Origin: Tachypleus tridentatus
Taxonomy: Eukaryota; Arthropoda; Merostomata; Xiphosura; Limulidae
DNA: 64,000 nt
Assembly: GCF_004210375.1 (NCBI RefSeq)
Contig: NC_134829.1
Coordinates: 27,110,034 to 27,174,033, forward strand
Reading direction: 5' to 3'
This document shows positions 18,029-60,591 of the stretch, piece by piece. The notes below the pieces were generated by a model. The model had not been told where the DNA came from. It saw nothing but the letters and a program-made list of their open reading frames with translations, and ran no database searches. Each line of letters opens with the position of its first letter. The first letter of the stretch is position 1. The position numbers and the translations under genes were made by a program.

Positions 18029-18455
18029 GTCACTAGCTAAAATGACTAAACTTTGAAGATATCATTAATTGAAGTTGATAAAATTTCAAGAAGACACTAC
18101 CTGAAGTGTGTAAACTTTCATTATGTATCTGATGTATTTGAAGTGGCTAAGCTTTCAAGATGTCACTAGTTGAAGTGGATAAACTTTCATTATGTTACTA
18201 TCTAAAATGGATAAACTTTCAAGATGTCACAACCTGAATTGGATGAATTTTCAACATGCCATTAGGTGAAATGGATAAACTTCCAATATGTCACTATCTG
18301 AAGTGAATAAACCTTCATTATGTCACTTGTTAAAGTAGCTAAATTTTCAATATGTTACTGACTGAAGTGGCTTAACTTTCAAGATGTCTTAAGGTGAATT
18401 GGATTATCTTTCAAGATGTCACTAACTGAAGTGGATAAACTTTTAATATGTCAGA
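18029..18455. repeat. Diverged satellite block, second copy at array edge
   Basis: This is the second copy of the diverged block at 16518-16965, followed by the end of the array. Units here match the monomer poorly, which is typical of array edges that escape homogenisation. Confidence 0.85.
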
Positions 18456-22278: not shown

Positions 22279-25200
22279 GTTTGTCTTTTTATTTTATTTC
22301 ATCTCAGACTTTTATCTTACATCTGTGCTTAGAACTGTATAATTCTCATGCAGTATTGCACTTGTGAACATTTTTCGAACTGCAAGAACTTAAAAAAAAA
22401 AACTGAACATATAGGTGGCGCTGTTTATTTTATCCTCCTAACTTTATTAAATCCGTGAAATACTTTAGTCTGCTACTATTTAGAAATCTAAGCTTATGAT
22501 CGAATGTAAGTTCTGATGTAGAACAAAGTACAAACTGACTTCCATGTTTGTTTTGTTTTTAAAAGAATCATTTGAATGGATAAAAATCACATAATAACAC
22601 TATGGAACAATCCTAGTAATCACATAATAACACTATGGAACAATCCTAGTAATCACATAATTCTATTTTTGTTTTGAAAAATGACGGTGAATTTTCTAGT
22701 CTCAATAGTTGCACTGGATACTTGAAAGTACGGCTAATAAGTTTTCACAAAAAAGCGGAACACACTTAGCGCATAAAGCAAGAAATGAAATATTCAAAGT
22801 TTGGTTTGTTTTGAATTTTGCACAAAGCTACACAAGGGCTATCTGTGCTAGCCGTCCCTAATTTACCAGTGTAAAACCAGAGGAAAGACAGTTAGTCATC
22901 ACCACCCGTCGCCAACTCTTGGGCCACTCTTTTACCAACGAATAGTGGGATTTACCGTCACATTATAATGCCCCCACGGCTGAAAGGCCAAGCATGTTTG
23001 ATGTGACGGGGATTCGAACCCGTAACCCTCGGAATACGAGTCGAGTGCCTTAACCATCTGGCCATGCCGGGCCGATACATTCAAAGAAATGCAGAATTAA
23101 AAAATACAAAAATTCGTAATAAAACAAAATAATAAAACGAATCACAAAACCTCATTTGAAGAGGTAACAGAATAATTACGTAAAGCTTTCTTAGTAGTAC
23201 TGAACCTCAGTTCAGTATCTATTTTGTTGTACACCGTTACGAAGAGGGAATATTTATCATGAATTGAACGAGTTTTCATTCATTGCCGGTTTTATTTTTT
23301 AGTTACTTCCACTACATTGCATAATAGTAGTTGGTTATTCTGTTTTAGTGTTTTCCTTTTCGCGAACAGTTCTTACGTTTTATGCCTTTAGGGTTAAGAA
23401 ATTTCAACTTCTTTTTCCTCTACCAAAGAAAAATCGAAACATTAGAGCGTAATAAAACTTGGTATTGTAGAGGCAGAACTTAACTATATAATAATATTCT
23501 GTATTTTATTCTGAAACTTCTGAATTTATGAATCTTATAATAAAATAATTTCAGCGAAAGTAACTGGCTTGAATCTCGTGGTCTTCTGAGGAAATGATCG
23601 GATCAGTGAGTAAAACTGAACCTTTGTAAAAGAAGAAGGTTGAGATAAGCAGCAACGCTGTCTGAGCTTTAGAGCATATACAATTTAAAATTCATACTTT
23701 ATTACCATTTCTTCACATATTTCTAGGGGAGTTTGTCCCTTCTTTCCTCTACAGCTGGAGTCACTGCAGTTAAGAACAGTTTCTCATAGAATCAAGTGTG
23801 GTAAAATGCAATTTATGTTACGTACACCTGTGTTTACAGATATAGATTACGTAATACCACTTTTTGGCCCCTTGCTAGTACAGCGGTAAGTCTACGGATT
23901 TACAACGCTAAAATCAGAGGTTCGATACCTCTCGGTGGGCTCAGCAATTAAATAGCCCTATGTGGCTTTGCTATAAGAAAAACACACATCACTTTCTGTT
24001 GACCTTCAAAACTTGTAGTGAATACTGGAGAGATTAACACATTTTGATAAAACAATCTTTATACTCCATCTATGTATAAAAGAATTTTTAATGTTTAACC
24101 ATTGATATTATATAATATCATATCATATAATATCACTTTCATTTTGATGTTGGCTAGAGTTGGGAAAATTATTCTCATTCAGTCTTCTAATGAAGACTTT
24201 TAAGCATCTCTATTAGCACCAAGATAAAGTGTGTATCTGTGTTTATCTTATAGCAAAACCTCATTGGGCTTATCCGCTGTGTCCATGATTTCAGCGTTGT
24301 AAACCCGTAGACTCCTCTGTCTCAGCGGAGGACTCAAGATAAAGAGATAGAAAGTTAACTCCTCTGATTTGTTTGATAACGAAATAATTAGTTTTGATCA
24401 AAATATGGGTTCAGTTTTTTATTTTATTATACACATAAGTATAAATATCGTGTTAACGAGACATATATATAATAAGGTGTTAAATGTGGATGCAATTGAC
24501 ACTTCCCTCAAGAAGCGATCAAACGAATTAATTTTGTGTTCCTTAACTAACAGAATTTTTTTTTGTTTCTTTGCGAGCATGTCTCAGAATAACAACTTCA
24601 TTTCTCTAATAATTTCAATTTTTAGGCTTATCCTAAACGTCCTTCCTCTGCCCCAAAGATCGTCAGTATTATATCACTGACTCTCGTTATGATGACAATA
24701 CTGATTGGCGTATTTGTCTTACTTGGTTTTTATGTACAACTTCGCCACTCTGAATGTGATTGTGGACTTGAAAAGGCAAGTATTTGGTTCTGTGTATAAG
24801 TGTTGTATTTTTAAAGGCCAGCTATGGTGGTGCGACCAACTTATAAAATATTTGAGCCTATTTTTTACACTTTTAAGGATGCAATATTAAAGCACCTATA
24901 AAACTTGAAATGTGATTATACATATATCTTTGTGTTGTAAACCCCTAAATTCACCATAATGTTTTCCTACATGCATTTCAGTTGGGATGAATCGCTTTAG
25001 CGCAAAGCAAAATGTAATTTCGTATCATGACGTCAAACACTTCAATTAAGATCACATGATAACAATAATCACTTCAAGATAAGATTAAAATCACGTGATA
25101 GCAATAATTATGTCAAATTTTCATGAAGATTACGTGATAAAAAATCAAGTCAAGTTAAAGATTATGATCACGTGATAAAAACAATCACTTCAAGGTAAGA

Positions 25201-26173: not shown

Positions 26174-29100
26174 CTAATATTAATAAATATTAATATTTAT
26201 TATGTTAAACTTAATAATTACAGTTGTATATAAATATTTATATCGATCCCTCGTATATCACTTAACATCATTATCCTGTTTATTTGTTGTTAAGTACAAA
26301 GCTACGTAATAGGCCGATAGGCCTATCACGGTTATTGAAACCCGATTTTTAGGGACATAAGCCCTCACATTTACCACTGAACCACTAGAGGAAGATCGCC
26401 ATTTCAAGAATGTTAGTTGACTTTTAATAATGAATGAGAGATTAACCCTCGAAACCTACGTCATGATTACTTTTAACTGTACGTTCACTGTCCGTAGAAA
26501 TTGTTTATAGTAAAGGCTGAGGAGCAGTGTAGAACCTGAGAACTTAGTCCCTCTATATTTCTGAACGAAACTATTTTAATGTTTTGAAGTTAGTAAGAAA
26601 GGTGATCGCAGTCAAAATTTTGTGGTTAGTACTGAAATAGAAGTGGATTTCGTGTCTAGTATTATAACTAGAACTCATTTGTAATTTAAAATACTCATAA
26701 AGTTAACATAATATTTCAGGTTCCACAGCCATTTTCTCTAGAGAGGAGTAATCGTCAATCGAAACCAACCTATTACGACCCAGACCCTCTTCTGGCTGTT
26801 CCCAGTCGATCATCCAAGAAGATAACCGCTATTCCTCTTCGTCTTCATCTTGATGGCGACACAGGAGTAAGATGTCACAATATAAATCATAAATAAACCA
26901 GGGAAAGATGTATAATATAAACGGGATATCACTGGGGTATATTTGTGTATTAAATCGTATATACGTCTAGCTGTATTTTTCACTTGTTGGTCGCATTATG
27001 TATTTTGGGCATATTTTGTTACCGTTTGATCAGTTGGTGGTTTACTTAATATTCAAAGGCGTGTTTTTCACGCTGCTTTCAGCATTATCTTGGTCTATTT
27101 CAGCTTTCTTAAACATAGCAAGATCGATTATAGATTATAATCTACTAGAACTTTACCTAGTAGAGTTCTTGATGAGTAGTAATAAAACTAAATCGGGTAT
27201 ACATGTGCCCCACGCTTGGTACTGCATTCTGAACAAAAATATAGCTAATAAAAAGGAAACCAACAAGTATAATTAAAAAAATTAAAAACTTCGTAAATAC
27301 AAATAAGCTTCGAGATATATATATATATATGTATGTATAACCTAGCTAGCTGTACATTTGTATAACGTAGCTAGCTATATACATATGTATAACCTAGCTA
27401 GCTATAGTAATATAAAATGCTTTAAAGCTACAAAAGGTACTGAAACACAAAAAACAAACGTTCAAAACTACAAAAACTGAGGTACTTAAAATGTAAAAGG
27501 TTTTATCCCTACTTCGGCAGATCATTGTAATTATGTTAGCCTGAGCTAAAGTAGGGATAACAAACCATGAATTTTAAGTAACTCAGTTTTTGTAATTTTG
27601 ACTTTCTTTATTCAATATTTTTCGTAGCATTAGAGTTTTCTATATCATTACAGCTAGCTAGGTTATACATATATATCGATTCCTAGTTGTCTTTCTCAAA
27701 TTTAACTTATTATTATTATACGAGACTGCTTGGGATCCTTACGGATACTTACTGTTGTAACTGAACTGAATAAGAACAAGTAGAAAATCATGACTTGAAA
27801 AAAACACATAAAGAATTCTGGGTAATATTCTTCGTGTCCAACATTATGATTGAAATTTCTCCGGAAGTTGATAAACAAAGTTATCGAGTAAACATGTTTG
27901 TATAGGAAGTAAATAGTTATTTTTAAACGTATTCTTCTTGTTGTTCTGTCTTCTTAAGCGAATGATAAAGAAGAAAAATAAAGCTCGAGTCAGTTGTGAT
28001 GTTGAAAAGAAGAAAACCATGGCTCTCACTGCACAGAAGCCTAAGACGGTAGGTTTTCTTTATGGTAAAACCTTCCCTATACAGTGTGTGTTTGTGCTTC
28101 TTATAGTAAAGCCACATCAGGCTGTCTGCTGAATCCACCAAAGGGAATCAAACCCCTGATTTTAGCGTTGTAAATCCGTAGATTTAGCGCTGTATCAGCT
28201 GTGGACACAGTATTATCAAAGCTCATTAGTTCGTATAACATGACTTCCACGGTACATAAACACATTTTTATGGTTATCAGTATTATAATATTAAAATGAA
28301 AAATAACTTGTAATTAGCATTAAATTTAAATACTTTAGTATATTGTTGCAATATTATAGATTAAACACAGATATGTACGATTAAGATAAATTCAGTATTA
28401 AATAAATTGCTACAAGTTTATATAACTTATTTTGATTTTTTTCATATCTCTACGATGCTAATGTCCATTTTTCTTCAACTATTAAAATCAATTTTGTAAA
28501 GTTAAAATTGTAATGTACAGTGACATTACCATTTTCTTAAATTTTCGTTTTAACTTGATGAATCAAAAAAAGGCAGACGTTAGAATCCTTTCAAATTATT
28601 GGATAATCGAATTTGGGTTTAATATCTATAAAGTCTCCTATGAAGCTGCAGACGTCAAAGTAAAATGTGTACGTCAGGATAGGAGAATAATATGAAAGTG
28701 TTTGTTTCTTTAGTGCTAGGATAATACTCACAGGGCTATATCTAAGCTATATCTATCACACATTTCGAAACTGGAGAGGGGAGGAGGGAAGTTTGGGAAA
28801 CAAAGTAGTTCGGAGACATGTTCCCACGGAATAATTTTGCAATTACAATGACAACTTGGACCTATTTTGATATATTGGAGGAGAACATGTGAGGAAAATC
28901 AGGAACAACATATAAGTGATATTAATGTGAAAATAAACAGTCTGATGTCTAACCTAATATGACTTTCTAATATGTTTTTTTATTTTCATCTTTTCATCTG
29001 GAATTTTTACCACTAGCTATAATATTAATCACAACTCGTTATATTCTTACATAGAATCATTATTTTGGTTTGGTTTGTTTTTAATTTCACGCAATGCTAC

Positions 29101-32100
29101 AGAACGGCTACCTGCGCTAGCTGTCCCTAATTTAACAGTGTAAAACTATAGGTAAGGCAACTAGTCATCACCACCCACCGCCAGGTCTTGGGATACTCTT
29201 TTACTAACGAATAGTGGGATTGGCTGTCACTTTATAACGCCCCATGGCTGAAAGGACGAGCATGTGTGGTGCGACGGGGATTCGAACCTGCTGCTCTTAA
29301 ATTACGAGTCGAGTGCCTTAACCATGCCGGGCCATTTATTTTGAACCAAAAATTGAAAACAAATTAGGTAAATCATAATATTTTTCAAAATTACGAGAGG
29401 TGAGGGTAGAGGCAACTGCTGACTTCTTTGTGATGAATTGGGGACCCTGCTTCCTGTTCGAACGCCCATGAAAAGCACTTACACTAGCCAAATGAACATT
29501 TGAAACTTTTTGTTTTAGTACATCAAGGCTAGAGCATCCATGAATACTGTTAATCTAAACAAGCGTTTATGTTCTGGCTGGTTTCTGTAGCATTTACTAA
29601 TAAAAACACAAGGAATGTATTGAAGTGTTCCAAAACTTTATATGTTTTATTGCTATCACGAATTATTATTTGACATTACGTTCCTTTAAAAACGATATAA
29701 TCACGTGATGTTGTTTAGTGTTTGCGATGTAAAAAATTTACAGAACCTATAAGCGAAAAACGTAATGGACAAAACCGGTTTAAATCTTAATCGAGCTGAC
29801 CCAAAATGCATTTTTTCTACTACTAACATATCTTTCTTTATTTGAAGATTTTATCCAATTTTTAACTTAAGTTCTACTTATTTGGTGGATGTTCGAATAT
29901 CTGATATATTGTTTATAAACATCAATCGCCCTTTTCGTATTCCAGTTACGGCTCAAAGTGAGCTACGTCAATTTTGTTCGGTTAAAAACGAGTATAGCTT
30001 TACTGTGTACTTACTTATCTGCTTCAACGGTTCATTGACTTCTGTACTACTGTTGTTTACTGCTCGTTTCAATTTGATTATCCTGCGATTTTTAAATTTA
30101 TTCTTGCACAGATTAATACTGTTCACAGTACCATCTTTGTTTTCTCTGTGCTTACTAATCACGTGTTGTTGTTTTCAAAGTATATAAAGTAATTATCCTC
30201 GTCACGTAGTTCACGTTAAACTATTTCGTTCACCCCATTACACGACTCATAAAGCAAGCAACTCGTACGTAAATACAGTTTCTATCACATCAGACTTGTC
30301 TCATTGTTTTACTTTGTGTATTCTTTAACCTAGAATGGAACGATAATGTACTTCGCTTGTTATACAGTTTTCATCTTGGTAGTTTTCAGTACGGAACAAA
30401 TGACCTATTTTCCACGGTATTATTAATTCTTGTACTCACACTTCGGAGAACTTGCTTATTGTGAAGTGCTCAAAGGTAGAAAGGAACTCTTCTAGTCGTA
30501 ACTAAATAAATATTCACGTACTGATCATGGCTTGATAGAACTCTAAGTTTATTTATGAACTAAGACTTTTGTCGTCCTATTCATGTTCTAGAACTGTCTC
30601 ACTTTTTTTTTTCATTTTGTGCTAGGACTTCTTGTTGTTCTATTTATGTCCTAACAGTACTTTTAGTTTCATTTATCATCTAGAACTTCTTTTGGTCCTA
30701 TTTTTGTCTTAGGACTACCTTTTTGGTTTTTCTTTACCCCAGGGCTTTTCTGTCGTATTATTTTGGTGTTAGGATTATCTCTTTCTTATTTAGTTTATGT
30801 CCTCGAATTAACTTTTCATTGCCCCATTTATGTTCTAGAGTTTATTTGATGTCAATTTCAGTTATTAAGGTTAACTACCTCTTTGTTATTTCATTTATAT
30901 CCGAGAGCTACCTTTTTGTTACTCCATATACATCCTAGAGCTTCGTTATCATTCCGTTTGAGTCTTAGGACCATCTTTTTTTATTTCGTTTATGTTCTGG
31001 GATTACGTTTCTGTTGCTCCGTTTATGTCCTAGAGTTTCTTTGTAGTACACAACGGTACGTCTACAAATTTACAACGCTAAAATCAGAGGTTCGATTCCC
31101 TTCGGTGGGTTCAGCAGATAGCCTGATGTGGCTTTGTTATAAGAAAACACACGCTTTTCGTAATCCCATTTAGTTATTAAGTTCAACTACCTTTTTGTTG
31201 TTGTTTTGAATTAAGCACAAAGCTACACAATGGGCTATCTGTGCGCTGCCCACCACGGGTATCGAAACCCGGTTTTTAGCATTGTAAGTCCGCAGACATA
31301 CCGCTGAACCACTGGGGGGCGACCTTTTTGTTACTCCATTTATGTTCTATAATTGCCTTTTTGTTACTCCATATATGTTCTAGAGCTTCGTTGTCGTCCT
31401 ATTTATGTCTTAGGGCTAACTTCTTTTTTGTTATTCCATTTATGTCCTGAAGGCGACCTTGTCTTAATGCGTGTTATAAATGAAACTATATAAAAAAATT
31501 AATTATTTAAGATCCAACGATATAATTCATAATTATACACAGAACCGAGGATACTAGACTTTTGAATTTTGTCAAGGAGGTTAAATAACTATAATACTTC
31601 AATAAGTATTGTGGCAGTTGTATTACTCTAGACACAAATCAGGGTTGCGATAAAAAAAAGACGCCTCAATATGCACGTGCGAGAGCTCTAAACAAAACTA
31701 AAGCTCACTACTTTAATGTTGTTTTAACTAAGAAACTGATTCATTCATGGATAAAAACTGTTGTGTTTTTTTTTGTTGTTGTTGTTTTAGTTGATAACAC
31801 CATTGGGAAATATAACAACAGATCCACGTTTAATCCATATAATGGGTGAACGGATGGTGTTCTCGTGCCACAATGACATGCGCAACACGCATAAACCAAT
31901 GAATGATTATAAAGGTGAGTTCGGAACCTTCAGTATTTATTAATGATTGTGTTTCATGAATATTTGGTTATTCAACTATCGCAGTGAATTCATTCAAGTT
32001 TTAGGAGAATTGAAAATGGTTATTCAATTTTTAGCATAACTTTAACAGTAACATGCAAAAGAAACAGTGAACGACACTGCTCTTAAAGACGTAATTATTA

Positions 32101-32625: not shown

Positions 32626-33296
32626 CATCTAAATTGTTCATGTAATACTACCTGCTGATCATTACTGGCTTTACATCTAAATTGTTCATGTAATACTACC
32701 TGCTGATCATTACTGGCTTTACATCTAAATTGTTCATGTAATACTACCTGCTGATCATTACTGGCTTTACATCTAAATTGTTCATGTAATAGTACCTGCT
32801 GATCATTACTGGCTTTACATCTAAATTGTTCATGTAATACTACCTGCTGATCATTACTGGCTTTACATCTAAATTGTTCATGTAATACTGCCTGCTGATC
32901 ATTACTGGCTTTACATCTAAATTTTCATGTAATACTACCTGCTGATCATTACTGGCTTTACATCTAAATTGTTCATGTAATACTACCTGCTGATCATTAC
33001 TGGCTTTACATCTAAATTGTTCATGTAATACTGCCTGCTGATCATTACTGGCTTTACATCTAAATTTTCATGTAATACTACCTGCTGATCATTACTGGCT
33101 TTACATCTAAATTGTTCATGTAATACTACCTGCTGATCATTACTGGCTTTACATCTAAATTGTTCATGTAATACTACCTGCTGATCATTACTGGCTTTAC
33201 ATCTAAATTGTGCATGTAATACTACCTGCTGATCATTACTGGCTTTACATCTAAATTGTGCATGTAATACTACCTGCTGATCATTACTGGCTTTAC
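32626..33296. repeat. 48-bp minisatellite, about 14 copies
   Basis: The unit begins CATCTAAATTGTTCATGTAA, continues TACTACCTGCTGATCATTAC and ends TGGCTTTA. Copies are almost identical (single changes such as TTCATG to TGCATG and two copies lacking TG), so expansion is recent. It starts about 100 bases past the poly(A) site of the membrane-protein gene and is likely length-polymorphic. Confidence 0.97.
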
Positions 33297-35402: not shown

Positions 35403-35674
35403 AGCCCGGCATGGCCAGGTGGTTAAGGCACTCGACTCGTAATTCGAGGGTCGCGGTTTCGAATCCCCGTCGCACTAAACACGCTCGCACCTTTCAGCCG
35501 TGAGGGCGTTTTGATGTGACTCTCAATCCCCCTATTCATTGATAAAAGAGTTGGCGGTGGGTGGTGATGATTAGCTGCCTTCACTTTAGTCTTACACTAC
35601 TAAATTAGGGATGGCTAGCGTAGATAGCCCTCGTGTAGCTTTGCGCGAAATTCAAAACAAACCAAACCAAAAGC
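35403..35674 (+). mobile_element. tRNA-derived SINE, family A, full length, with TSD
   Basis: Head GCCCGGCATGGCCAGGTGG, B-box TTTCGAATCC, body slightly deleted, tail GTAGCTTTGCGCGAAATTC plus AAACCAAACC. An 8-bp duplication TATCAGAG flanks it (35395-35402 and 35675-35682). Confidence 0.93.
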
Positions 35675-36226: not shown

Positions 36227-36498
36227 TTTGTTTGTTTCTCAATTTCGCGCAAAGCTACATGAGGGCTATCTGCGCTAGCCGTCCCTAATTTAGCAGTGTA
36301 AGACTAGAGGGAGGGTAGCTAGTCATCACTACCCACCACCAACTCTTGGGCTACTCTTTTATCAATGAGTAGTGGGATAATCGTCACATTACAATGCCCC
36401 ACAATTGAAAGGGCAAGCATGTTTGGTGTGACGGGGTTTCGAACCCACGACCCTCAGATTACGAGTTGAGTGCCTTAACCACCTGGGCATGCCGGGCC
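36227..36498 (-). mobile_element. tRNA-derived SINE, family A, full length
   Basis: On the minus strand: head GGCCCGGCATGCCCAGGTGG, B-box GGTTCGAAACC, body intact, tail GTAGCTTTGCGCGAAATTG followed by AAACAAAC. Confidence 0.94.
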
Positions 36499-45466: not shown

Positions 45467-46068
45467 ATGATGTATTCAAAAAAATTGAAACTACGTTTTT
45501 GTATGTGTTCAAATTGGGGAAAAATACAACTGAGGCCGCTAAAACGTCAATTTGGATTTTAGACAAGAAACTATTTCTCAACGAACTGTTAGGCGTTGAC
45601 TCCAGAAATTTTGTTCTGGTGAGATGAACCCCGAGGGAAGCCTCAGTCTGTTGTGAATTAAGAAAGATTAAGAGTTAATGTGTACGCTAACCCACAAACG
45701 ACAGTTTGGCACTCGCAGCAGACTTGCTTATTATCTCCTTTACGGCACTTGGAGTTGTCTCACCTGACCTATCTCCAAATTATTATCTCCTTTACGGCAC
45801 TTGGAGTTGTCTCACCTGACCTATCTCCAAATTATTATCTCCTTTACGGCACTTGGAGTTGTCTCACCTGACCTATCTCCAAATTATTATCTCCTTTACG
45901 GCACTTGGAGTTGTCTCACCTGACCTATCTCCAAATTATTATCTCCTTTACGGCACTTGGAGTTGTCTCACCTGACCTATCTCCAAATTATTATCTCCTT
46001 TACGGCACTTGGAGTTGTCTCACCTGACCTATCTCCAAATTATTATCTCCTTTACGGCACTTGGAGTT
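45467..46068 (+). pseudogene. Mariner transposase remnant
   Basis: With frame changes the stretch 45500-45600 reads like the mariner N-terminal helix-turn-helix region (FKLG, TTEAAK, then RQETISQRTVRRW). The repeated segment reads SPDLSPNYYLLYGT, matching the family's SPDLAPSDYHLF region near the third catalytic Asp. The middle of the protein is deleted, so it cannot be active. Assignment rests on my memory of the family. Confidence 0.8.
45731..46068. repeat. 52-bp tandem repeat, 6.5 copies, inside mariner
   Basis: Copies start at 45731, 45783, 45835, 45887, 45939, 45991 and 46043 with TTATCTCCTTTACGGCACTT and are identical or nearly so. The unit derives from the transposase segment around SPDLSPNYY. 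Expansion is much younger than the decay of the element. Confidence 0.97.
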
Positions 46069-46389
46069 GTTTTCCTGGAACAAAATAGTTAGGAATCATG
46101 AGAGTATTGTCAAAGCCTTTGAAGAATTTATTGTCTCCTAAACAACAAAGTTTTATAAAGACGGAATATTTTCATTAGTATCCTGTTGGGAGAAAACCAT
46201 TGCAGCAAATAGAGTGTATTATAATTAATAAAAATGGTGTTTGTTAAAAATAAGGCATTTTAATTTTTACCTATACGATCGGCCATTTCATATGAAACGA
46301 GTTAATATGTTAATATAAAGTGATTGTGGGTTTGAGATTTATGGATTTTTGAAAGTTTTTATGTTAGTGTAAGGAAGGAGCATTGTACT

Positions 46390-48935: not shown

Positions 48936-49198
48936 GGCCTGGCATGGCCAAGCGCGTAAGGCGTGCGACTCGTAATCCGAGGGTCGCGGGTTCGCGCCCG
49001 AGTCGCGCTAAACATGCTCGCCCTCCCAGCCGTTTGACGGTCAATCTCACTATTCGTTGGTAAAAGTAGCCCAAGAGTTGGTGGTGGGTGGTGATGACTA
49101 GCTGCCTTCCCTCTAGTCTTACACTGCTAAATTAGGGACGGCTAGCACAGATAGCCCTCGAGTAGCTTTGTGCGAAATTCCAAAAAACAAACAAACAA
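48936..49198 (+). mobile_element. tRNA-derived SINE, family A, full length with perfect TSD
   Basis: Head GGCCTGGCATGGCCAAGCGC, B-box GGTTCGCGCCC, small body deletion, tail GTAGCTTTGTGCGAAATTCC and (AAAC)n. A 12-bp duplication ACAGTCCAATAT (48924-48935 and 49199-49210) flanks it. The tail hairpin here is the GCACA/TGTGC form. Confidence 0.95.
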
Positions 49199-50110: not shown

Positions 50111-50233
50111 TTTTGTTTGTAATTAAGCACAAAGCTACACAATAAACTATCTATGTTGTGCCTAACACGGGTATCGAAACTCGATGTTAAGTGTTACAAG
50201 TTTGCAGACTTACTGTTCAGTCATTGGAGGGCC
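50111..50233 (-). mobile_element. tRNA-derived SINE, family C
   Basis: Minus-strand head GGCCCTCCAATGACTGAACA, B-box GAGTTTCGATACCC and tail GTAGCTTTGTGCTTAATTAC. A probable 9-bp imperfect duplication TAT(C/T)AGCAA lies at 50102-50110 and 50237-50245. Confidence 0.8.
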
Positions 50234-50267: not shown

Positions 50268-50545
50268 GACCCGGCATGGCCAGGTGGTTAAGGAACTCGA
50301 CTCGTAATCTGAGGGGTACCGGTTCGAACCCCCGTCACATCAAACATGCTCGCCCTTTCAGCCGTGGGGGCGTTATAATGTGACGGTCAATCCCAATATT
50401 CGTTGGTAAAAGAGTAGCCCAAGAGTTGGCGGTGGGTGGTGATGACCAGCTGCCTTCCCTTTAGTCTTACACTGCTAATTTAGGGACGGTTAGCGCAGAT
50501 AGCTCTCGTGTAGCTTTGCGCGAAATTTCAAACAAACCAAACCAA
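50268..50545 (+). mobile_element. tRNA-derived SINE, family A, full-length reference copy
   Basis: Head CCCGGCATGGCCAGGTGG, a slightly altered B-box GGTTCGAACCC, complete body, tail GCGCAGATAGCTCTCGTGTA then GCTTTGCGCG and AAACAAACCAAACC. A 12-bp imperfect duplication ACTGTTTGA(T/C)AG flanks it (50256-50267, 50546-50557). The tRNA-like head folds with an anticodon position reading CGT, so it may derive from tRNA-Thr. That is inference. Confidence 0.95.
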
Positions 50546-51252: not shown

Positions 51253-51332
51253 TTGGCATATGCCATAAATGCGATACATATTAATATTTAATTAACTTCT
51301 AAATTAAACTTTTTGGCTATTTGAAATATTAT

Positions 51333-51614
51333 TTGTTTGGTTGGTTGGTTTTGAATTTCGCGCAAAGCTACACTAGAACTATCTGCGCTAGCCGTCCCTA
51401 ATTTAACAGTGTAAGACTAGAGGGAAGGCAGCTAATCATCACCACCCACTATCAACTTTTGAGCTACTCTTTTACCAACGAATAGTGGGATTGACTATCA
51501 CATTTATAACGCCCCTACGCCTCAAAGGGCGAGCATGTTTGGTGTGACGGGGATTTGAGCCCGTGACCCTCAGATTACGAGTCGAGTGCCTTAACCACCT
51601 GGTCATGCCGAACC
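51333..51614 (-). mobile_element. tRNA-derived SINE, family A, full length
   Basis: Minus-strand head GGTTCGGCATGACCAGGTGG, B-box GGCTCAAATCC, full body, tail GTAGCTTTGCGCGAAATTC and AACCAACCAAACA. Confidence 0.94.
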
Positions 51615-51924
51615 AAGTACACTAAGTCAACATCCTTTTTATTATACAAGTATCACGTAAGGACACCAGAGTAGTTGGTATTTAAAGCATCTATATAAAT
51701 AATACGCTTTAGTTAGTCTGTCCAGAAGCGATCAATCGCTACAAATCTCTATTGTTAGAAAGAACTTTGACCGTGGCGTCCGGTTTGCATATAACTTTCC
51801 ATTTAGAGTCACTTTACATGATTTTTGCATAGTTAATTTTTTAATGCAATGAATGAAGTACATGATGGTACACGGTCATTGTCATCAGGTGACGACTGGT
51901 TCCCATTTCAGTTTTAGTTAGTTT

Positions 51925-52033
51925 TTGTTTATTGTTTATTTCCAGTTAACCAAAAAGATGCACAATGGGGCATCTTTGCTCTGCCAACCACGAGTATCGA
52001 AACCGGGTTTCCAGCGTTAATCCACAGATACAC
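51925..52033 (-). mobile_element. tRNA-derived SINE, family C, decayed
   Basis: It retains GAAACCCGG/GGTTTCGATACTCG on the minus strand and a degraded tail. No target duplication was found. Confidence 0.65.
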
Positions 52034-52465
52034 TTGTAGGATTTTGTTGTAGTGTGAATTTTGTTTAATTGTTACTACAGTAACAATATAGAGTTATTCT
52101 AACTCGTATTCTGAGGGTCGCGGGTTCGCATCCCCGTCGCGCCAAACATGCTCGTCCTTTCAGTCATGGGGGCGTTATAATGTGACGGTCAATCTCACTC
52201 TTCGTTTGTAAAAGAGTAGCCCAAGAGTTGGTGGTGGGTGGTGATGACTAGCTGCCTTTCCTCTAATCTTACACTGCTATTTTAGGGACGGCTAGCACAG
52301 ATAGCCCTCGTGTAGCTTTGTGCAAAATTCCAAAACAAACAAACAAAATTCTATAAACTATCTGCATTTTTCAATAAGCGGGAAAGTTTAATGTTATTTT
52401 TGTTTGCCTCTAGACTACTAAGTTAGCGTTTCAAGTTTGAACTGGATTGGTCAATATGTTTATTT
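52034..52465. repeat. Unnamed dispersed repeat, copy 2, split by a SINE
   Basis: The left part (52034-52096) and right part (52351-52465) match consecutive parts of 41765-41970 (CTTGTAGGATTTTGTTGTAG; then TTCAATAAGCGGG and ACTAAGTTAGCGTTTCAA). The SINE at 52100-52350 interrupts it. A short duplication ATTCTA occurs on both sides. Confidence 0.55.
52100..52350 (+). mobile_element. tRNA-derived SINE, family A, head-truncated
   Basis: It begins within the anticodon arm (ACTCGTATTCTGAGGG). B-box GGTTCGCATCC, full body, tail GTAGCTTTGTGCAAAATTCC and (AAAC)n. It sits inside an unnamed dispersed repeat. Confidence 0.92.
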
Positions 52466-53760: not shown

Positions 53761-53763
53761 TTT

Positions 53764-54034
53764 CGTTCATTTTTAATTTCGAGCAAAGCTACATGGCAGC
53801 TATCTGCACTAGCCATCCCTTATTTAACAGTGTAAAACTAGATGGAAGGCAGCTAATCACCACCACCCACTGCCAACTCTTGGGCTATTCTTTTACCAAC
53901 AAATAGTGGAATTGACTGTCAAGTTATAATGTCCCCATGGCTGAAAGGGTGAGAGTGTTTGGTGTGATGGGGATTTGAACCCACGACTCTCGGATTATGA
54001 GGCAAGTGCCTTAACCACCTGGCCATACCAGGCC
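53764..54034 (-). mobile_element. tRNA-derived SINE, family A, full length
   Basis: Minus-strand head GGCCTGGTATGGCCAGGTGG, B-box GGTTCAAATCC, body complete, tail GTAGCTTTGCTCGAAATTA. Imperfect flanking duplication GCTTAA(A/G)TGAG. Confidence 0.93.
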
Positions 54035-54243
54035 TGCTTAAGTGAGACAGACAATGCCTGAAATTAGGTGTATGGGTACTTCATGGTAATCACTCAATAT
54101 TATTCTGAACTTTCACATCCAATTTTTTGTTTCTCCTCTTATTAACATACATAAACTGTATCTGTTAAAAGTCCTTTTGAAAGATGATATTAAACAGGTG
54201 TTACATTTTTTTTTATCATTCAATTTTAATATTCTGTTCCATT

Positions 54244-55174
54244 TGATTGATTGATTTAAGTGTTTTTTGGCACAAAGCAGCTAGGCTATCTGTGCCAAAC
54301 ATCCGGCCAAAAGGTAAAAATAAAGTAAATGCAGTAAAATACATAAAAGGAAATGAAGATAAAACAAAACACCATTGAAAAACAGAAAAAGCATAAAACC
54401 AATGTTGACATCTAGTTTACAATGGTAAGAGAGAAAGCAGAGTAAAAGAAGTTGTAAGGTATTTACTCTAGCAAAAAGGTAATGAACATAACCCACCAGG
54501 AAGACTAACAGGTAAGTACAAGAACTACCGTTAGTCACCTGAAGTTGGTCTTTCCAGTCCTGGTACCCGGTTATGTGTCAACAGCCATTATCAAAATGTA
54601 AAATAATAGAAGTTTTAAAAGACACATAGCAAAATCGTAATAATGAGTAGCCAAATGTCGGGTAAAAAGGTAATTGTGAAGTAAATGGAGTAAAAGTTTT
54701 AAAAGTAAATGAATGTAAAAACAAAACAGCAATTAAAACAGAAAATGGCGTAAAACCAATGTTGACATCCAGTCTGCAAACTTGTAAAGGACTTCTGTAG
54801 CAGAATGGTAATGATCATAACCCACCAGGAAGACTAACAGGTAAGTTCAAGAACCACCGTCAGTCACCTGAAGTTGGTCTTTCCAGTCCTGGTTCCGGGT
54901 TATGTGTCATTATGGCCAGTACTTAGAGGTAAAGTAATAAAAGTGTTAAATGACATGCAGCAAAAGTGTAATAACAACTCGCCAGGACGACTAACGAGTA
55001 GTTCAAACGGATAGTTCAAACAGCAGCATTAGTCACCTGAAGTTGGCCTTTCCAGTCCTGGTGTAGAGTTATTTAATGTTCTGGCCATTTTCCAATGTCA
55101 AATTAAACTAGAGAGAATGAAACTGTAAAAACGTAACCACAATTAAAAAGGTGTAATGAATAAATATCCAACAC
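54244..55174 (-). other. LINE 3'UTR with triplicated module, hairpin and simple tail
   Basis: Three copies of a module containing GTCACCTGAAGTTGGTCTTT and CCAGTCCTGG (plus strand) lie at about 54491-54580, 54820-54910 and 54978-55075. At the extreme 3' end, 54269-54296 is a hairpin with a perfect 6-bp outer stem GGCACA/TGTGCC and an inner AGC/GCT pairing. Reverse transcription probably starts after it. The tail is TTAAATCAATCAATCA. Confidence 0.8.
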
Positions 55175-58100
55175 TTAAATGAGATTAAAAAAATTAATGG
55201 CCATTAAAAAACCAAAAACTTTATCAAGGTGGACAGTGTCACCATCACCAATAACACTGTCCAATGTTACAGATAAACCCTGGGAAAAAACATGTTTAAA
55301 ATATTGCCGTAGTTGAGAATTGTAACGATGGCAAGAAAGTAAAATGTGACTGATAGTGATTTGAGTGTTACACAAACTACACATTGGTGCATCAGTTCCA
55401 GATAAAAGAAAACGATGAGTTAAAAAACTGTGACCAATGCGTAGTCTAGTTAGAACAACTTCCTCCTTCCGAACTTTATGGAAGCTAGATGGCCAAAGCC
55501 CAATATAGGGTTTTATTTGAAAAAGCTTGTTGTCACGTTGCTCACTCCAAGTGGACTGCCAGCTGGCACGGATCCGACTCTTGAATACACGACCATAGTC
55601 CATGTACGGAATAGGCACAATGGTGATAGTGCCGGAGCAGATAGATTTAGCTGCCGTGTCTGCAAGCTCGTTCCCACGAATACCAACATGGCCTGGTATC
55701 CAGAAAAACTGGATAGAAGTGGCAGTTAATGAGAAATGGGCCAATGAGTTTTGAATATCAGCAAGAACAGTGTGTGAACCAACGTGTAGCGATTCCAGGG
55801 CCTATATAGAACTAAGAGAGTCAGTATAAATAGTGCAGTTGGAGTACTGCTCAGCTGCAATATGATCCAGGGCAAGAGATATGGCATACAGTTCAGCAGT
55901 GAACACAGAAGCTGTAGAGGGGATTCTGCTCGCAACTACCAAACCGCAGCAAACCATAGCAGAGCCCACTGAATTACCCGATTTGGAACCATCTGTATAA
56001 ATTGGAATGGAATGATTGTTTGAAAGATGTTCATTAAATAAAAGACGGTACCTCCAATGTGGAGTATCTGCCTTTTTCAGATGACTGAAAGAAAGGTCAC
56101 ATTTGAGGGCAGTAATAAGCCATGGTGGGATGGGCTGACCTGTGGAATCTGCAATGTTATCCAAGGACAGACCCAATTCATCCAATTGCGCTCTGATACG
56201 AAGGCCAAACGGAGCAATGTCAGATCCTCTGTTCTGAAAAAGTACGGCCCACTGAGGAAGGAAAACACATCCCCAGGTAGGATGTTTTGTTAAGGAACGA
56301 AGTTTCGAAGAATATTGTAAAGATAGTTGCAAACGGCGAAGGTGCAGAGAAGGTTCATGAGATTCGACGTATAAGCTTTGAACTGGAGAGGTACGGAAAG
56401 CCCCAGTGCAGAGTCGAAGTCCTTGGTGATGAATGGGGTCCAGCATCTTTAAGGCCGAGGGTCTGGCAGAGCCATAGACTATTGATCCATAGTCAAGTTT
56501 TGATCGAATAAGAGCACGATATACCTATAACATTGAACATCAATCTGCTCCCCAACTGGTAGAAGAGAGGTCACGGAGGATGTTCAGTGCTCTTGTGCAT
56601 TTGACCCAAAGCTGCTTTAAGTGTGGTATAAAGGTCAGCTTACAGTCAAAGATAAGCCCCAAGAACTTGGTCTCAGGGACCACTGGCAACGAAACTTCAC
56701 CGATATTAAGTTCAGGATCAGGGTGAATACCCTGTTGGCGGCAAAAGTGCATGCGTACGGTTTTAGAAAGAGAGAAATTAAAGCCGTTCGCCCTAGTCCA
56801 CTTCAGTACACGATTGAGGGCAGTTTGTAGTTGCCGCTCAATATATCTCATGTTTGACGACTGACATGGGATGTGAAAGTCGTCGACATACAGCCCATTC
56901 GCAATAGTGAGAGGGAGTTGTTCAGTGATGGCATTTATCTTTATACTGAAAAGTGTGACACTCAAAACACTGCCTTGAGGGACTCCAAGTTCCTGTACAA
57001 AAGAACGGGAAAGTGTCGAACCCACACGAACTTGGAATCTCCTGTCCATTAAAAAATTTTTAATAAACATGGGTAAATGGCCACGTAACCCATATGTATG
57101 GAGGTCTCGCAAAATGCCATACCTCCATGTTGTGTCGTAAGCCTTCTCAATGTCAAAGAATATTGATACAGGATGTTGGCATTTGAGAAAGGCTTCTCTG
57201 ATTGATGTTTTAAGACGAATTAGGTGGTCCATGATGGAGTGCTGTCGTCAGAAACCACACTGAGTGGGCCACAGGAGGTTGTTTGATTCGAGGAACCAAA
57301 GAAGATGAGCATTAACCATCCTTTCTAAGATCTTACAGAGACAGCTTGTCAAAACAATTGGAATCTTGGGATCTTTCCCTGGCTTAGAAAAATGTAAAAT
57401 AATAGCCTGGCACCAGGCATCAGGAAAAACATTCTCCTGCCAGATCCGGTTAAAGACAATCAGAAGGACATCAAGAGAAGCAGGAGATAGATGGTGCAGC
57501 ATGTCATAATGAACATCATCAGGTCCAACAGATGTACTGGCAGACTGATGAAGGGCCATTTTCAGTTCCACCAGTGTAAAGGGACAATTATAGTCAAAGA
57601 AACAGTCAGTTCGAAAGGAAAGAGGTGAACGCTCTGTCTGAGTCTTGATGGCCAAGAAGGTGGAGGAATAAGCAGAAGTGCTAGATACCCGGCAAAAGCT
57701 TTCACCTAGAGTATCAGCGATGCTCCGGACATCAGCTACCTCCTGACAATCAGAGAGTAAGATCGAGAGGGGGACAGAATTGTAGTGCACATTAACCTTT
57801 CAAATCCTGTCCCATATGATCTTGGAACTGGTGGTAGAAGATATGCTAGTTGTGAACCTAATCCAAGATTCCTTCTGGCTTTAACGTCTTACCCACCTAG
57901 TATGTGCCCGTTGGAAAGCGACGCGGTTTGAAAGTGTGGGATATCTACGAAAAGTATCCCAGGCCGGTTTTGAGACTTCTGTGATAAGTGGCAAGCAGGA
58001 TTCCACCACGGATGAGGATATCGTGGAAAACATGTCGAGGTTTTAAGAATACACTGAGCAACTGCTTGTATAATACAGCCAGTTACCGCTGCCACACAGT

Positions 58101-58869
58101 TGTCTATTGATGGCTGATTTACGATTGCAGGATCAAGTTCTGCGAGAGCAGTGAAAGTGGACCAGTCTGCCTGATCCAGCTTCCACCAGGGTACGCGGGT
58201 AGGGTGGCATCGACCACAGCCAGTCTCTCTCAAAAGGATAGGAAAATGATCACTGCCTAGTGGATTACTGCCAACCCTCCATGAAAAATGGGAGAATAAT
58301 GAAGGGGAGCAAACCGAGAGATCGGTAGCGGTAAAGGACTGACTAGGTGCATGAAACTAAGTGGAAGAACCAGTATTGAAAAGAGAAAGATTGTGATCAG
58401 AGAGCATACGCTCTACAAAGCGACCCCTCCCATCAATAACAGCACTTCCCCAGAGGGGATGATGTCCATTAAAGTCCCCCAGGATTAGAAATGGAGAAGG
58501 CAACTGTTCAACAAGAGCATCAAGGTCTGATTGATCATATGTCTCTCCAGGGGACAGGTAGAGAGAACAAACAGTGATGGTATGACCCAAGGAAACATGG
58601 ATGGCTACGGCCTCCAAGGGTGTGTTGAGTGACAAAGACAGGGTGGGCACATGCTGATCAACCAATAGTGCCACCCCTCCATGTACTCGTCCATCACACA
58701 GCCTGTCATTTCTGTACAGAGAAAACTGTTGAATGGTGACTGTATAGGCAGGTTTGAGAAATGTTTCTTGTAAGGAAATACAAACAGGATGGTAGGAAGC
58801 AATCAGTGTTTTGATATCATCCAGATTAGAACGTAAACCTCGACAGTTCCATTGTATCAAGGTGGCCAT
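55175..58869 (-). pseudogene. LINE ORF2: endonuclease, reverse transcriptase, RNase H (broken)
   Basis: ORF2 starts at ATG 58869, two bases after the ORF1 stop. The endonuclease shows WNCRGL, QETFLK, LILGDFNGHHPLWGS and, past an in-frame TAG at 58357, GSDHFPI. A frameshift near 57963 and stops at about 57900-57800 separate it from the RT. The RT has FFDIEKAYDTTW (motif A), LGVPQGSVLS (motif B), YVDD (motif C) and FLGLIFD, and is broken by TGA at 57248 (from CGA), TGA at 56540 and a TAG shortly after. RNase H follows with IYTDGSK, AELYAIS, YTDSLSS and WIPGHVGIRGNELADTAAK, so all four acidic positions are kept, with one TAG at 55802. The frame ends at 55175, giving about 1,230 codons, normal for the family. 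Confidence 0.92.
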
Positions 58870-58871
58870 TT

Positions 58872-60138
58872 TTAATGAAGGGTAGGTGAAGTGGCTGGAG
58901 AACCCTTCTGTTTACGACCACATCTTTTTTCCTTACTGTCCTTAGTCGGAGGAGGTCTATCAACCTCCATGGATCCTGCCCTGGGTCAAGTGGGCAGGTC
59001 TTTGTTATTGGAAGGGGATTCCAGTGACTGAGGATGCGAATGGATAATTGTTTTGCCTCTTGGGGTGGGAGAAAAAGATGTATCAGAAGAAATGCCTGTA
59101 TTTAAAACTGAAGGATGTGGATCTTGAGGTTTGTTGAAATGTATGGGAGGAACAGAGATGGGTGTAAAAGTTGATTCATCAACCTTTTTAACCATGGAGG
59201 TCAAAAGGCTTTACATTTGTTTTGAAAATGATTCTCTTGGAGGCACAGAGAGATCTGTCTGCATCCCCACTGCAGTTGTGGAATGAAGTGCAGCAGCATA
59301 TGTCCAAGGTGGAGTGGTGGGCAGCAATTTCCGAGCCTCAGGATAACTAATGTTATGTATCGTTTTCAAATGCTGCACCTCTTTTTCCTCCAACCATTTT
59401 GGGCAAGAACGAAAGTAAGAGGGGTGAGAACCATTGCAGTTTACGCAATGTGGGTTCATGTCACAGTCATAGGCATCGTGGTCCTTGCCTCCACAACGAG
59501 CACATGTCAGGGAACCACGACAAGATGTCTTTGAGTGGCCAAATCTCTGACATTGGAAACATCGAAGAGGGTTTGGTATGTATGGCCGAACCCTACAAAT
59601 GAGATAACCTGCCTTGATGGTGGCAGGTGCACGTGGTGAAGTAAATGTTAAAACGAGGGTATTTGTTGGCAGTGTAACTCCATCTTTGCGAGTGGAGATG
59701 CGCCTCACTGCAGAAACTCCTTGAGTGGAGAGACCAGCGAGAATCTCTGACTCGGGAACGTTCTTCAAATCCCTTTCAACAATAACTCCTCGTGAAGAAT
59801 TCAAGGTAGCATGGGGTGTAACCTCAATAGGTATATCCCCAATTGCCTTTGAATTCAAGAGGAGTTCACTGTGTTGGGATGTGGATGTTTCAACCAATAT
59901 GTCACCAGATCGAAGTTTCTTTACTTACTTTGGAGAGCCAGCAAGTCCCTCTAGTCCCTTTTGAATAAAAAAAAGGGGGCATTTGCCCTAAAGGATTTTC
60001 CGAAAGAGAATGTAATATAAGAAAATGAGGTGTGTGTGTTACTGATGTTGAAGATTGCTGTTCTGAGTATTCAAGACGTGATCGCTTACCCATTGACTGT
60101 TTTTTTACAATTTTATTTAAATTTTTTGGAGGATCCAT
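58872..60138 (-). pseudogene. LINE ORF1: CCHC zinc-knuckle nucleic-acid-binding protein (broken)
   Basis: The start is probably ATG 60138 (MDPPKNLNK). A frameshift in the A8/G5 homopolymer at about 59967-59981 and an in-frame TAA at about 59911 separate the N-terminus from the main part. The main frame holds three knuckles: CFQCQRFGHSKTSC, CARCGGKDHDAYDC and CVNCNGSHPSYFRSC, followed by KTIHNISYPEARKLL. It then continues through a TAA at 59211 and a TGA at 58986 in the same frame to the natural stop at 58872-58874. In I-type elements this protein coats the element RNA. The apparent start at 59897 is TTG and not real. Confidence 0.88.
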
Positions 60139-60577
60139 AGGAAAAGGAAAAATTTCGGAACCCACTGACCTCACCCACCATGGAGCCCTACAAGGGGACG
60201 CACTACAAAGTCATGCAAGGACAATGCAGCAACGCCAGGGTTTCGTGAGCACTATACCCAAACACCAGCATCAGGCACAATGTCCACAACACCCATTGAG
60301 AACTTCCAACACTGGTACTTGGTTGACTCTAGCCCAAGTGGACCAGCCAATTGACCCAAGGGGGGCCACCCAAAGGCCGCCCATCTACAGGAATTCGAGG
60401 CCAAAGTGGTGTGTTAGGGTTGGACCCCTCAACCACCAGGATCCTCTCCTCCCCTTCACGGGTCGCCACGCACGGCAAACACATGGGTGGATATTTAGAT
60501 CCCAGAGAAGGTAACCAGACAGAACAGAACCTTCCCTGGGAGGTCCCTCACCACGTACAGGAATCCACACCGAGGGG
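60139..60577 (-). promoter_or_regulatory. LINE 5'UTR with presumed internal promoter
   Basis: About 440 bases, GC-richer than the surroundings, beginning CCCCTCGGTGTGGATTCC on the minus strand just inside the putative target duplication. LINEs of this kind carry a TATA-less internal Pol II promoter here. That role is inferred from position. The 100-160 codon frames on the plus strand are shadows. Confidence 0.6.
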
Positions 60578-60591
60578 TATTCTGTTGCATT

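What the first reader, a model, noticed from the sequence alone, without database searches (positions are those of the whole stretch)
54244..54300. LINE 3' hairpin is shared, with compensatory changes, by three SINE families in the same window
The last bases of the LINE fold as GGCACA...TGTGCC with inner AGC/GCT around a CAGATAGCC core. The 3' ends of SINE family A have GCGCA...TGCGC (or GCACA...TGTGC at 48936-49198), family C GCACA...TGTGC, and family B AGCA...TGCT with AGCC/GGCT. All keep CAGATAGCC and GCTTTG, while stem bases change in pairs. Paired change argues for a selected RNA structure. Stringent LINEs are known to recognise a 3' hairpin shared with their SINEs (eel UnaL2 and salmonid SINE pairs are the classic cases). 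Here one I-type lineage may serve three unrelated tRNA-head SINEs, each with its own terminal simple repeat.
Basis: partly seen in the sequence, partly recalled or inferred. Interest (0 to 1): 0.85.

Follow-up and report, generated by a model that had tools for sequence, protein, structure and literature searches.

The report
Shared hairpin ending LINEs and SINEs
A short hairpin closes several families of mobile DNA in one animal genome, both the self-copying long ones and the short parasites that probably borrow their copying enzyme; this is an abundant new case of a known arrangement.

Summary
The hairpin is real. It lies at 54269-54296 (-), at the 3' end of a LINE spanning 54244-60577 with imperfect target-site duplications. 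Its core CAGATAGCC occurs 307,789 times in the 2.17 Gb genome against 1,981 for the reversed pattern. It also ends two related LINE families and the three SINE families. Between LINE1 and LINE2 the hairpin is 29/32 identical while the sequence upstream is no more alike than shuffled sequence, so it looks selected. Stems co-vary between family consensuses (4 of 5040 arm permutations reach the observed pairing), and the B family's pair 4 is a double transversion. Copy-level support comes from SINE A alone; without A there is no significant excess, and most changes are CpG transitions. C tails fold otherwise on their own. Two corrections: SINEs B and C share one head (53/63 identical), so there are two head lineages, not three; and the window's LINE is not the best match, since A2 and C match LINE2 better and A1 matches LINE3. 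No LINE found shares the SINEs' terminal repeats. Most likely a stringent-type recognition hairpin.

The parts
54244..60577 (-). LINE copy (called LINE1 here), about 6.3 kb, frames broken, 3' end at 54244, terminal repeat (AATC)n
   Evidence: Target-site duplication at both ends; endonuclease, RT and RNase H matches; 39 further copies of its 3' end scored at 92-94% identity
54269..54296 (-). 3' hairpin, 28 nt: GGCACAG / UUGUGCC outer stem, AGC/GCU inner stem; in this copy the outer stem extends to 54266-54299
   Evidence: z -4.99; which pairs the middle in a slightly shifted register
54230..54243 (.). target-site duplication next to the LINE 3' end (TATTCTGTTCCATT)
   Evidence: (9-bp exact part), extended by eye
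60578..60591 (.). target-site duplication next to the LINE 5' end (TATTCTGTTGCATT, 13/14)
   Evidence: read
59211..59924 (-). LINE ORF1 piece with CCHC-like knuckles
   Evidence: Pfam zf-CCHC only E 0.93, below the cut-off
58357..58911 (-). LINE ORF2 endonuclease piece
   Evidence: PF03372 E 1.7e-13
56540..57247 (-). LINE ORF2 reverse transcriptase piece
   Evidence: PF00078 E 9.2e-22
55175..56524 (-). LINE ORF2 RNase H, in two frames
   Evidence: PF00075 E 2.3e-05 and 1.8e-04, each under the curated cut-off
48936..49198 (+). SINE A, A2-type tail GCACA/TGTGC, 12-bp target-site duplication ACAGTCCAATAT
50268..50540 (+). SINE A, A1-type tail GCGCA/TGCGC, target-site duplication ACTGTTTGA
51332..51610 (-). 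SINE A, A1-type tail
52102..52345 (+). SINE A, GCACA/TGTGC tail
53762..54034 (-). SINE A, decayed, next to the LINE
22801..23073 (-). SINE A, GCACA/TGTGC tail
36227..36498 (-). SINE A, A1-type tail
35404..35670 (+). SINE A, A1-type tail with one changed base (GCGTA/TGCGC)
31116..31136 (+). SINE B tail core (one of three B tails; the others are at 23950-23970 + and 28107-28127 -)
31218..31240 (-). SINE C tail core, GCACA/TGTGC (second copy at 50130-50152 -, decayed)

Best explanation
The hairpin is the template-recognition element of a group of related stringent-type, I-like LINEs. After transcription, the LINE ORF2 protein would bind the last ~30 nt of an RNA carrying this hairpin and start target-primed reverse transcription in the short repeats just downstream. 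SINE RNAs of two head lineages (A, and B/C) carry the same hairpin and so would be copied by these enzymes. Shown here: presence, position at the 3' end, conservation across three LINE and three SINE families, and co-change of the stem between family consensuses. Inferred: binding, trans-mobilisation, and which LINE serves which SINE. What stays nearly fixed is the CAG-AU-AGC / GCU-UUG middle; the apical loop varies in length and sequence (9 nt in A, 10 in C, 6 in B, 6 or 3 in LINEs by register). I therefore infer that the bulge and inner stem, rather than the apical loop, carry the shared identity.
For: 307,789 exact cores against 1,981 for the reversed control. The LINE-type stem-loop pattern occurs 2,923 times, control 0. 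Of 89 sequenced exact-core sites, 70 are SINE (47 A, 13 B, 10 C), 15 are LINE ends and 4 unassigned (14 of the 89 placed by eye). LINE2 and LINE3 ends lie behind ORF2 C-termini about 44-79% identical by segment to LINE1's, so they are related families. Hairpin identity between LINE1 and LINE2 is 29/32 while upstream it is 32/63, equal to shuffled sequence. RNAalifold gives the same bulged hairpin for 15 A and 10 B tails and a shifted register of it for 15 LINE tails. On 92 distinct arm strings, 50 cells changed on both sides against 12.5 in shuffles, 0 of 500. Seven family consensuses: 44 of 49 pairs, reached by 4 of 5040 permutations. B differs from the others at pair 4 by A-U for C-G, transversions on both sides. 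In SINE A, |phi| of x3-y3 is 0.72 against 0.46-0.48 with the neighbouring loop marker, Mantel-Haenszel p 0.0004. A hairpin with a bulge near the loop is the form described for stringent LINEs (PMC5135761, passages).
Against: SINE A hairpins alone fold no better than shuffles; one B tail and the C tails fold otherwise when alone. Pair-3 and pair-4 consensus differences among A and the LINEs are CpG transitions; in 20 LINE3 copies pair 4 pairs 14 times, 13.7 expected. Permuting within families gives a significant excess only because of SINE A: 499 of 545 against 490.1 with A (6 of 5,000), 340 of 373 against 337.8 without (955 of 5,000). In SINE A, x3-y3 ranks only 19th of 903 column pairs, and in the loop-T class it is not significant (p 0.13). 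None of the three LINEs shares the SINEs' sequence or repeat after the stem. No protein-RNA or mobilisation test was possible.
Confidence: 0.7

Rival explanations
1. Shared ancestry plus CpG decay. The tails descend from one LINE 3' end, and the apparently paired changes are independent CpG-to-TpG or CpA mutations on the two arms (GGCGCA has a CpG, TGCGCC has a CpG) spread by subfamily replacement. No RNA structure is selected.
For: The pair-3 and pair-4 differences between LINE1, LINE2, LINE3, A1, A2 and C consensuses all fit CpG transitions. LINE3 copies show pair 4 as CG 6, TA 4, TG 4, CA 4, others 2, no excess of pairing. Outside SINE A no within-family excess is significant. The A1 to A2 change travels with other subfamily markers. 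In 100 LINE tails pair 3 shows no association (GC 13, GU 61, AU 24, AC 2; p 0.34).
Against: It does not explain why the hairpin stays 91% identical between LINE1 and LINE2 while the rest of the 3' end is saturated, the double transversion at pair 4 of B, or the pair-3 association inside one loop class of A (5 GC, 1 GU, 15 AU, 0 AC; p 0.0003).
Confidence: 0.18
2. The direct partner of the SINEs is a further LINE family, not sampled here, whose 3' end carries the hairpin and also the SINE-like AATTCAAAAC or ATAAGAAAACACAC ends. LINE1 to LINE3 are only its relatives.
For: LINE1, LINE2 and LINE3 end CCATAAAACAC-(AATC)n, CCAATAAACATG-(ACCT)n and CCAATAAACGCC-(AACC)n, none like the SINE ends. Only 15 of 89 sampled sites were LINE ends, so a rare partner could be missed.
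Against: LINE2 and LINE3 match the A and C hairpins well. Terminal repeats may drift by slippage.
Confidence: 0.4
3. The conserved stretch is a DNA or processing signal (a protein-binding site, or a 3'-processing signal of the transcript) and the stem is incidental.
For: The most conserved letters, CAGATAGC and GCTTTG, are nearly invariant rather than covarying; C tails prefer another fold.
Against: The arms change together between families, and sliding the partner by 1-3 columns drops pairing from 90.6% to at most 68.2%.
Confidence: 0.08

Closest known systems
Eel UnaL2 / UnaSINE1 (L2-clade stringent LINE and its SINE; described in PMC5135761, passages seen)
   Same: A LINE and a SINE share a 3' hairpin with an internal loop; the hairpin is needed for copying there.
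   Different: There the GGAUA loop and the (TGTAA)n repeat are shared and required. Here the loops differ between families, terminal repeats are not shared, and the LINE carries RNase H matches.
Zebrafish ZfL2-1 and ZfL2-2 (PMC4176376, abstract and two sections read)
   Same: 3' stem-loop recognised by ORF2; the stem tolerates replacement by another paired stem.
   Different: There specificity lies in the apical loop. Here the loop differs among families while the bulge region and inner stem are nearly fixed.
Maize and sorghum L1-lineage LINEs with ZmSINE2/3 (Ohshima 2013, PMC3747384, one section read and passages)
   Same: About 50 nt of shared 3' end forming a putative hairpin with compensatory changes between several LINEs and SINEs: the closest published parallel I saw.
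   Different: L1 clade in plants, with conserved loop UCU and flank CGAG; a different sequence and clade.
Plutella PxSE4 / PxSE5 and PxLINE1 (PMC8010984, passages seen)
   Same: Two SINEs share a 250-bp 5' part and differ at the 3' end, as B and C do here; one 3' tail matches a LINE (43 bp, 84%).
   Different: 5S rRNA heads and another tail; no hairpin analysis in the passages seen.
Salmonid SINEs and their LINE
   Same: SINEs with a LINE-derived tail.
   Different: Recalled from general knowledge and named in the finding; not compared here by sequence.

Membership tests
Stringent-type LINE/SINE pair | SINE and LINE share their 3'-terminal sequence | tested here: met
   12 of 12 SINE-LINE consensus tail comparisons score above all 500 shuffles, B only narrowly; the match is confined to the hairpin, about 28 nt
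Stringent-type LINE/SINE pair | 3' hairpin with an asymmetric internal loop or bulge 4-6 bp from the apical loop (PMC5135761) | tested here: inconclusive
   Met in B (2-nt AU bulge, 4 bp from the loop) and the LINE set (1-nt bulge, 4 bp from the loop); in A the AU bulge is 3 bp from the loop. The C set folds otherwise
Stringent-type LINE/SINE pair | SINE and LINE share the terminal tandem repeat | tested here: not met
   LINE1 (AATC)n, LINE2 (ACCT)n, LINE3 (AACC)n against A AAAC-rich, B ACAC, C AAC-rich; only these three LINE families were seen
Stringent-type LINE/SINE pair | Compensatory stem changes | tested here: inconclusive
   Consensus level yes (4 of 5040, not corrected for ancestry). 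Copy level: SINE A yes, LINE1-type pair 4 p 0.017 and pair 3 p 0.34, all groups without A not significant
Stringent-type LINE/SINE pair | The LINE protein binds and copies the SINE RNA | not testable with these tools
   Needs a retrotransposition or in vitro assay
UnaL2-type (L2 clade) pair | GGAUA apical loop and (TGTAA)n tail; LINE without RNase H (the last recalled) | tested here: not met
   Loops CTAGCT, CTAGTT, CTAGTA in LINEs; RNase H matches after RT
I-like LINE | APE-type endonuclease and RT in ORF2 | tested here: met
   PF03372 E 1.7e-13, PF00078 E 9.2e-22
I-like LINE | RNase H domain after RT | tested here: met
   Two collinear pieces in two frames, E 2.3e-05 and 1.8e-04; 25 and 22.1 bits against a curated cut-off of 25.8, each piece covering part of the profile
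I-like LINE | ORF1 with CCHC knuckles | tested here: inconclusive
   CX2CX4HX4C motifs are visible, but Pfam zf-CCHC scores 10.2 against a cut-off of 20.8
I-like LINE | Position in an RT tree | not tested
   No reference set of LINE reverse transcriptases was at hand
tRNA-headed SINE | tRNA-like 5' part with A and B boxes | tested here: inconclusive
   ARAGORN finds no tRNA at default threshold; at a lowered threshold one C copy folds as a cloverleaf (output cut after the first sequence); B-box-like GGTTCGAATCC is visible

The most novel reading that the evidence does not exclude
A recognition code unlike that of the L2-type pairs: at least three I-like LINE families share one hairpin, read mainly through its AU bulge and AGC/GCU inner stem and not through the apical loop. 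The SINEs then follow their LINEs: older A1 (GCGCA/TGCGC) matches LINE3 (same stem, more diverged copies) and younger A2 (GCACA/TGTGC) matches LINE2, with LINE1 in the G-U intermediate state, so that SINE subfamily turnover would record a change in the helper's hairpin.
Probability: 0.27. Interest if true: 0.7.

Novelty: new member of a known kind. Interest (0 to 1): 0.45.

Why it matters
A genome in which one hairpin is shared by several LINE families and several SINE families, with hundreds of thousands of core copies and natural stem and loop variants, is a ready-made mutational scan of what a LINE reverse transcriptase reads in its template. This case adds an I-like group, gives explicit identity letters to test (AU bulge, AGC/GCU), and separates likely real co-change (pair 4 of B) from CpG decay that merely looks compensatory.

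Tried and rejected
Relatives outside the genome: three exact tail patterns in viral contigs gave 0, and the LINE RT gave no confirmed relative there. Rfam: no family. A paper search by tail letters listed 40 of 484 papers, whose titles looked unrelated; this does not show the families are unpublished, since Repbase is not in the library.

A loose motif rule gave 34 hits against 18-32 in shuffles and was dropped as evidence. MAFFT on whole tails misplaced the B arms and one row was given on the wrong strand, so arms were aligned with the loop left out. LINE3's GGTGCA/TGCACC copies first looked like true compensation; the LINE3 sample then showed no excess over independence, so I rejected that reading. 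The idea that the window LINE is the direct helper was set back in favour of LINE2 and LINE3 as closer matches. A first within-family permutation (507 of 562 against 494.5, 0 of 5,000) held a misassigned, three misparsed and one frame-shifted row; the cleaned one is weaker and is the one I rely on. An argument that A-C is depleted against G-U in LINE tails was dropped: 2 seen, about 4 expected from the counts.

Rows dropped: near-identical tails counted once; six tails assigned by name by eye (L120, L124, L191, L228 to B, L162 to C, L231 to LINE1); L262 and L263 (indel); L238, L260, L261 (duplicates); L276 (indel) but still; L135, L213, L234 (odd loops); one B copy (L137 at 2884) counted among the 47 A, moved and left out with other non-8-nt loops. 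One search used 92 of 93 strings. LINE1 copies L128-L157, LINE2 copies L239-L259 and LINE3 copies L262-L282 were chosen as best matches to one copy each, so their low divergence is biased. Of the about 100 places listed, 89 were read; seven further members of one tandem array and the last three listed were not fetched.

Full report
What is there. The finding's coordinates fall on the 3' end of a LINE on the minus strand. The LINE runs from 60577 down to 54244. A 9-bp exact repeat flanks it, and reading on by eye gives a 14-bp duplication with one mismatch, 54230-54243 and 60578-60591. It has broken frames with endonuclease, RT and RNase H matches. The last structured element, 54269-54296 (-), is GGCACAGATAGCCTAGCTGCTTTGTGCC, followed by AAAAAACACTTAAATCAATCAATCA. 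The window holds about 19 SINE A copies or fragments, three B and at least two C tails.

How common it is. The own genome is held (2.167 Gb, 205 contigs; window = C5:27110034-27174033). CAGATAGCC occurs 154,610 + 153,179 times against 1,010 + 971 for the reversed pattern. I read 89 of the roughly 100 listed places. By script 38 were A, 13 B, 7 C, 11 LINE1, 1 LINE2, 2 LINE3, 3 unassigned and 14 unmatched by the rule or removed as duplicates. By eye those 14 are 9 A, 3 C, 1 LINE2 and 1 copy of an unassigned repeat. The totals are 47 A, 13 B, 10 C, 15 LINE and 4 unassigned. In 50 kb taken at 20 preset places SINE A covers 4.6%, B and C 1.2%, these LINEs 2.6%.

Three LINE families, not one. The window's LINE1 3' end has many near copies (40 scored of 2,466 candidates, 92-94% apart from the window's own copy). 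LINE2 (40 scored of 1,042) ends GGCACAGATAGCCTAGTAGCTTTGTGCC AATAAACATGAAATACCTACC. LINE3 (40 scored of 2,276) ends GGCGCAGATAGCCTAGTTGCTTTGCGCC AATAAACGCCAAACAACCAACC (read). Both lie behind ORF2 C-termini similar to LINE1's (L238 58-79%, L260-L262 44-73% amino-acid identity by segment). The LINE1-LINE2 upstream identity is 32/63 against a shuffled mean of 0.52, while the hairpin is 29/32; LINE1 and LINE3 are also alike upstream (47/61). Between LINE1 and LINE2 the hairpin stands out as the preserved island of an otherwise saturated 3' end.

Fold. RNAalifold on 15 A tails and on 10 B tails gives the same shape: an outer stem (GCRCAG/UUGYGC in A; AGCAG/UUGCU in B), a 2-nt AU bulge, an inner stem (AGC/GCU in A; AGCC/GGCU in B) and a loop. 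The 15 LINE tails fold in a shifted register with AGA/UUU paired and one C bulged. Six C tails do not give it: their consensus fold pairs GCAGAGCACA with other partners, UGU and GCUUUGU. Alone, LINE1 hairpins beat shuffles clearly (z -2.78, -4.99), L161 (-1.75), L229 (-1.89) and a C tail (-1.79, in the other fold) less so, two A tails not (-0.35, -0.12), and a B tail (-1.32) folds otherwise.

Covariation, between families. The consensus arms of A1, A2, B, C, LINE1, LINE2 and LINE3 pair at 44 of 49 positions (pairs 1-7). Of 5,040 ways to reassign 3' arms only 4 do as well, those that swap identical arms; five families taken as more independent give 1 of 120. The families are not fully independent, so this is not a strict p-value. 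Pair 3 is G-C in A1, B, LINE3; A-U in A2, C, LINE2; G-U or A-U in LINE1. Pair 4 is C-G in all but B, which has A-U: transversions on both sides. On 92 distinct arm strings, 50 cells show changes on both sides against 12.5 (sd 9.9) in shuffles, 0 of 500 reaching it; the number of pairs with such changes (4) is reached by 85 of 500 and the number of further pair types (16) by 49 of 500.

Covariation, within families. This is weaker. The pair-3 and pair-4 consensus differences other than B's are CpG transitions. After cleaning, permuting columns within seven groups (140 copies, pairs 2-5, B 2-4) gives 499 of 545 pairs against a mean of 490.1 (sd 2.5), reached by 6 of 5,000; permuting whole arms, by 11 of 5,000. 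Without SINE A it is 340 of 373 against 337.8, reached by 955 and 1,015 of 5,000. So the within-family signal is SINE A's. There x3-y3 has |phi| 0.72, rank 19 of 903 column pairs; the 15 strongest, as printed, look like subfamily markers. It exceeds its links to the loop marker (0.46, 0.48) and stays after stratifying on it: loop-A class 5 GC, 1 GU, 15 AU, 0 AC (p 0.0003); loop-T class 12 GC, 3 GU, 3 AU, 2 AC (p 0.13); Mantel-Haenszel p 0.0004. In 100 LINE-type tails pair 4 gives CG 64, TG 24, TA 8, CA 4 (odds ratio 5.3, p 0.017), pair 3 GT 61, AT 24, GC 13, AC 2 (p 0.34), and the two unpaired controls 0.66 and 0.53. In 20 LINE3 copies pair 4 pairs 14 times, 13.7 expected: old copies decay independently. 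If selection acts, it acts on masters before insertion, and copies then drift.

Heads. B and C heads are 53/63 identical (score 92, shuffle maximum 38); A against B or C is within the shuffle range. B and C are one head lineage with two tails that differ at both arms of the stem. A similar case, two SINEs with one 5' part and different 3' ends, is described for Plutella PxSE4 and PxSE5 (PMC8010984, passages).

Who serves whom. Local alignment of consensus tails puts A2 and C closest to LINE2 (46, 45), A1 closest to LINE3 (42), and B slightly nearest LINE3 (31), all above 500 shuffles; the window's LINE1 is best for none. Flank divergence medians are 5.3% for A with A-U at pair 3 and 11.6% for A with G-C, against 3.7% LINE2, 4.3% LINE1, 9.3% LINE3; the LINE values are biased low by best-match choice. 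The parallel is suggestive only. None of the three LINEs carries the SINE sequence or repeat after the stem, which in eel UnaL2 is shared and needed (PMC5135761, passages). A closer partner may exist.

Mechanism. By analogy with UnaL2, ZfL2 and other stringent LINEs (PMC4176376: abstract and two sections; PMC5135761: passages), the hairpin is most likely bound by ORF2 and sets where reverse transcription starts. In zebrafish the apical loop gives specificity. Here the loop is CTAGCT-like in LINEs, CCTCGTGTA in A, CCATTGTGTA in C and YGATGT in B, while CAGATAGC and GCTTTG are nearly invariant; note that most tails were found through that core, which favours its constancy. I therefore propose that the AU bulge and inner stem are what is read. 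This step is inference.

Comparison with print. Shared LINE/SINE 3' hairpins with compensatory changes are published, closest for maize and sorghum L1-lineage elements (PMC3747384, section 4.3 and passages). Of nine paper searches I saw titles and abstract starts only, apart from the papers named here; none of these mentions this tail. One search returned nothing. The library omits Repbase, so the families may already be named there.

Noticed in passing
window 1-18453: A satellite array of a 32-bp unit (TGTCACTAGTTGAAGTGGCTAAACTTTCATTA), about 550 copies, fills the first 18 kb.
   Followed up: no
window 54310-55062: The LINE 3' untranslated region holds imperfect repeats: its last stretch recurs at 54650-54909 (76%) and 54959-55062 (72%), upstream of the hairpin.
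   Followed up: no
G000:C1:268805-269376 (L164): A tandem array in which a SINE-A-like tail recurs at spacings of 43, 86-88 or 174 bp: the tail seems to have seeded a satellite.
   Followed up: no
window 51918-52030 (-): A decayed C-like SINE whose tail reads GCAAAGATGCCCCATTGTGCATCTTTTTGG; its head resembles C by eye.
   Followed up: no
window 32626-33296 and 45728-46070: Two young tandem arrays, 48-bp unit (98% matches) and 52-bp unit (100% matches).
   Followed up: no
G000: SINEs A, B and C cover about 6% of 50 kb taken at 20 preset places. If so, the published view that SINEs are a small share of repeats there (PMC7815833, passages) would need another look.
   Followed up: partly
L239:2-562: Next to one LINE2 end lies an ORF1 stretch 96% identical in amino acids to the window LINE's ORF1 (187 residues), probably a neighbouring LINE1 insertion.
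   Followed up: no
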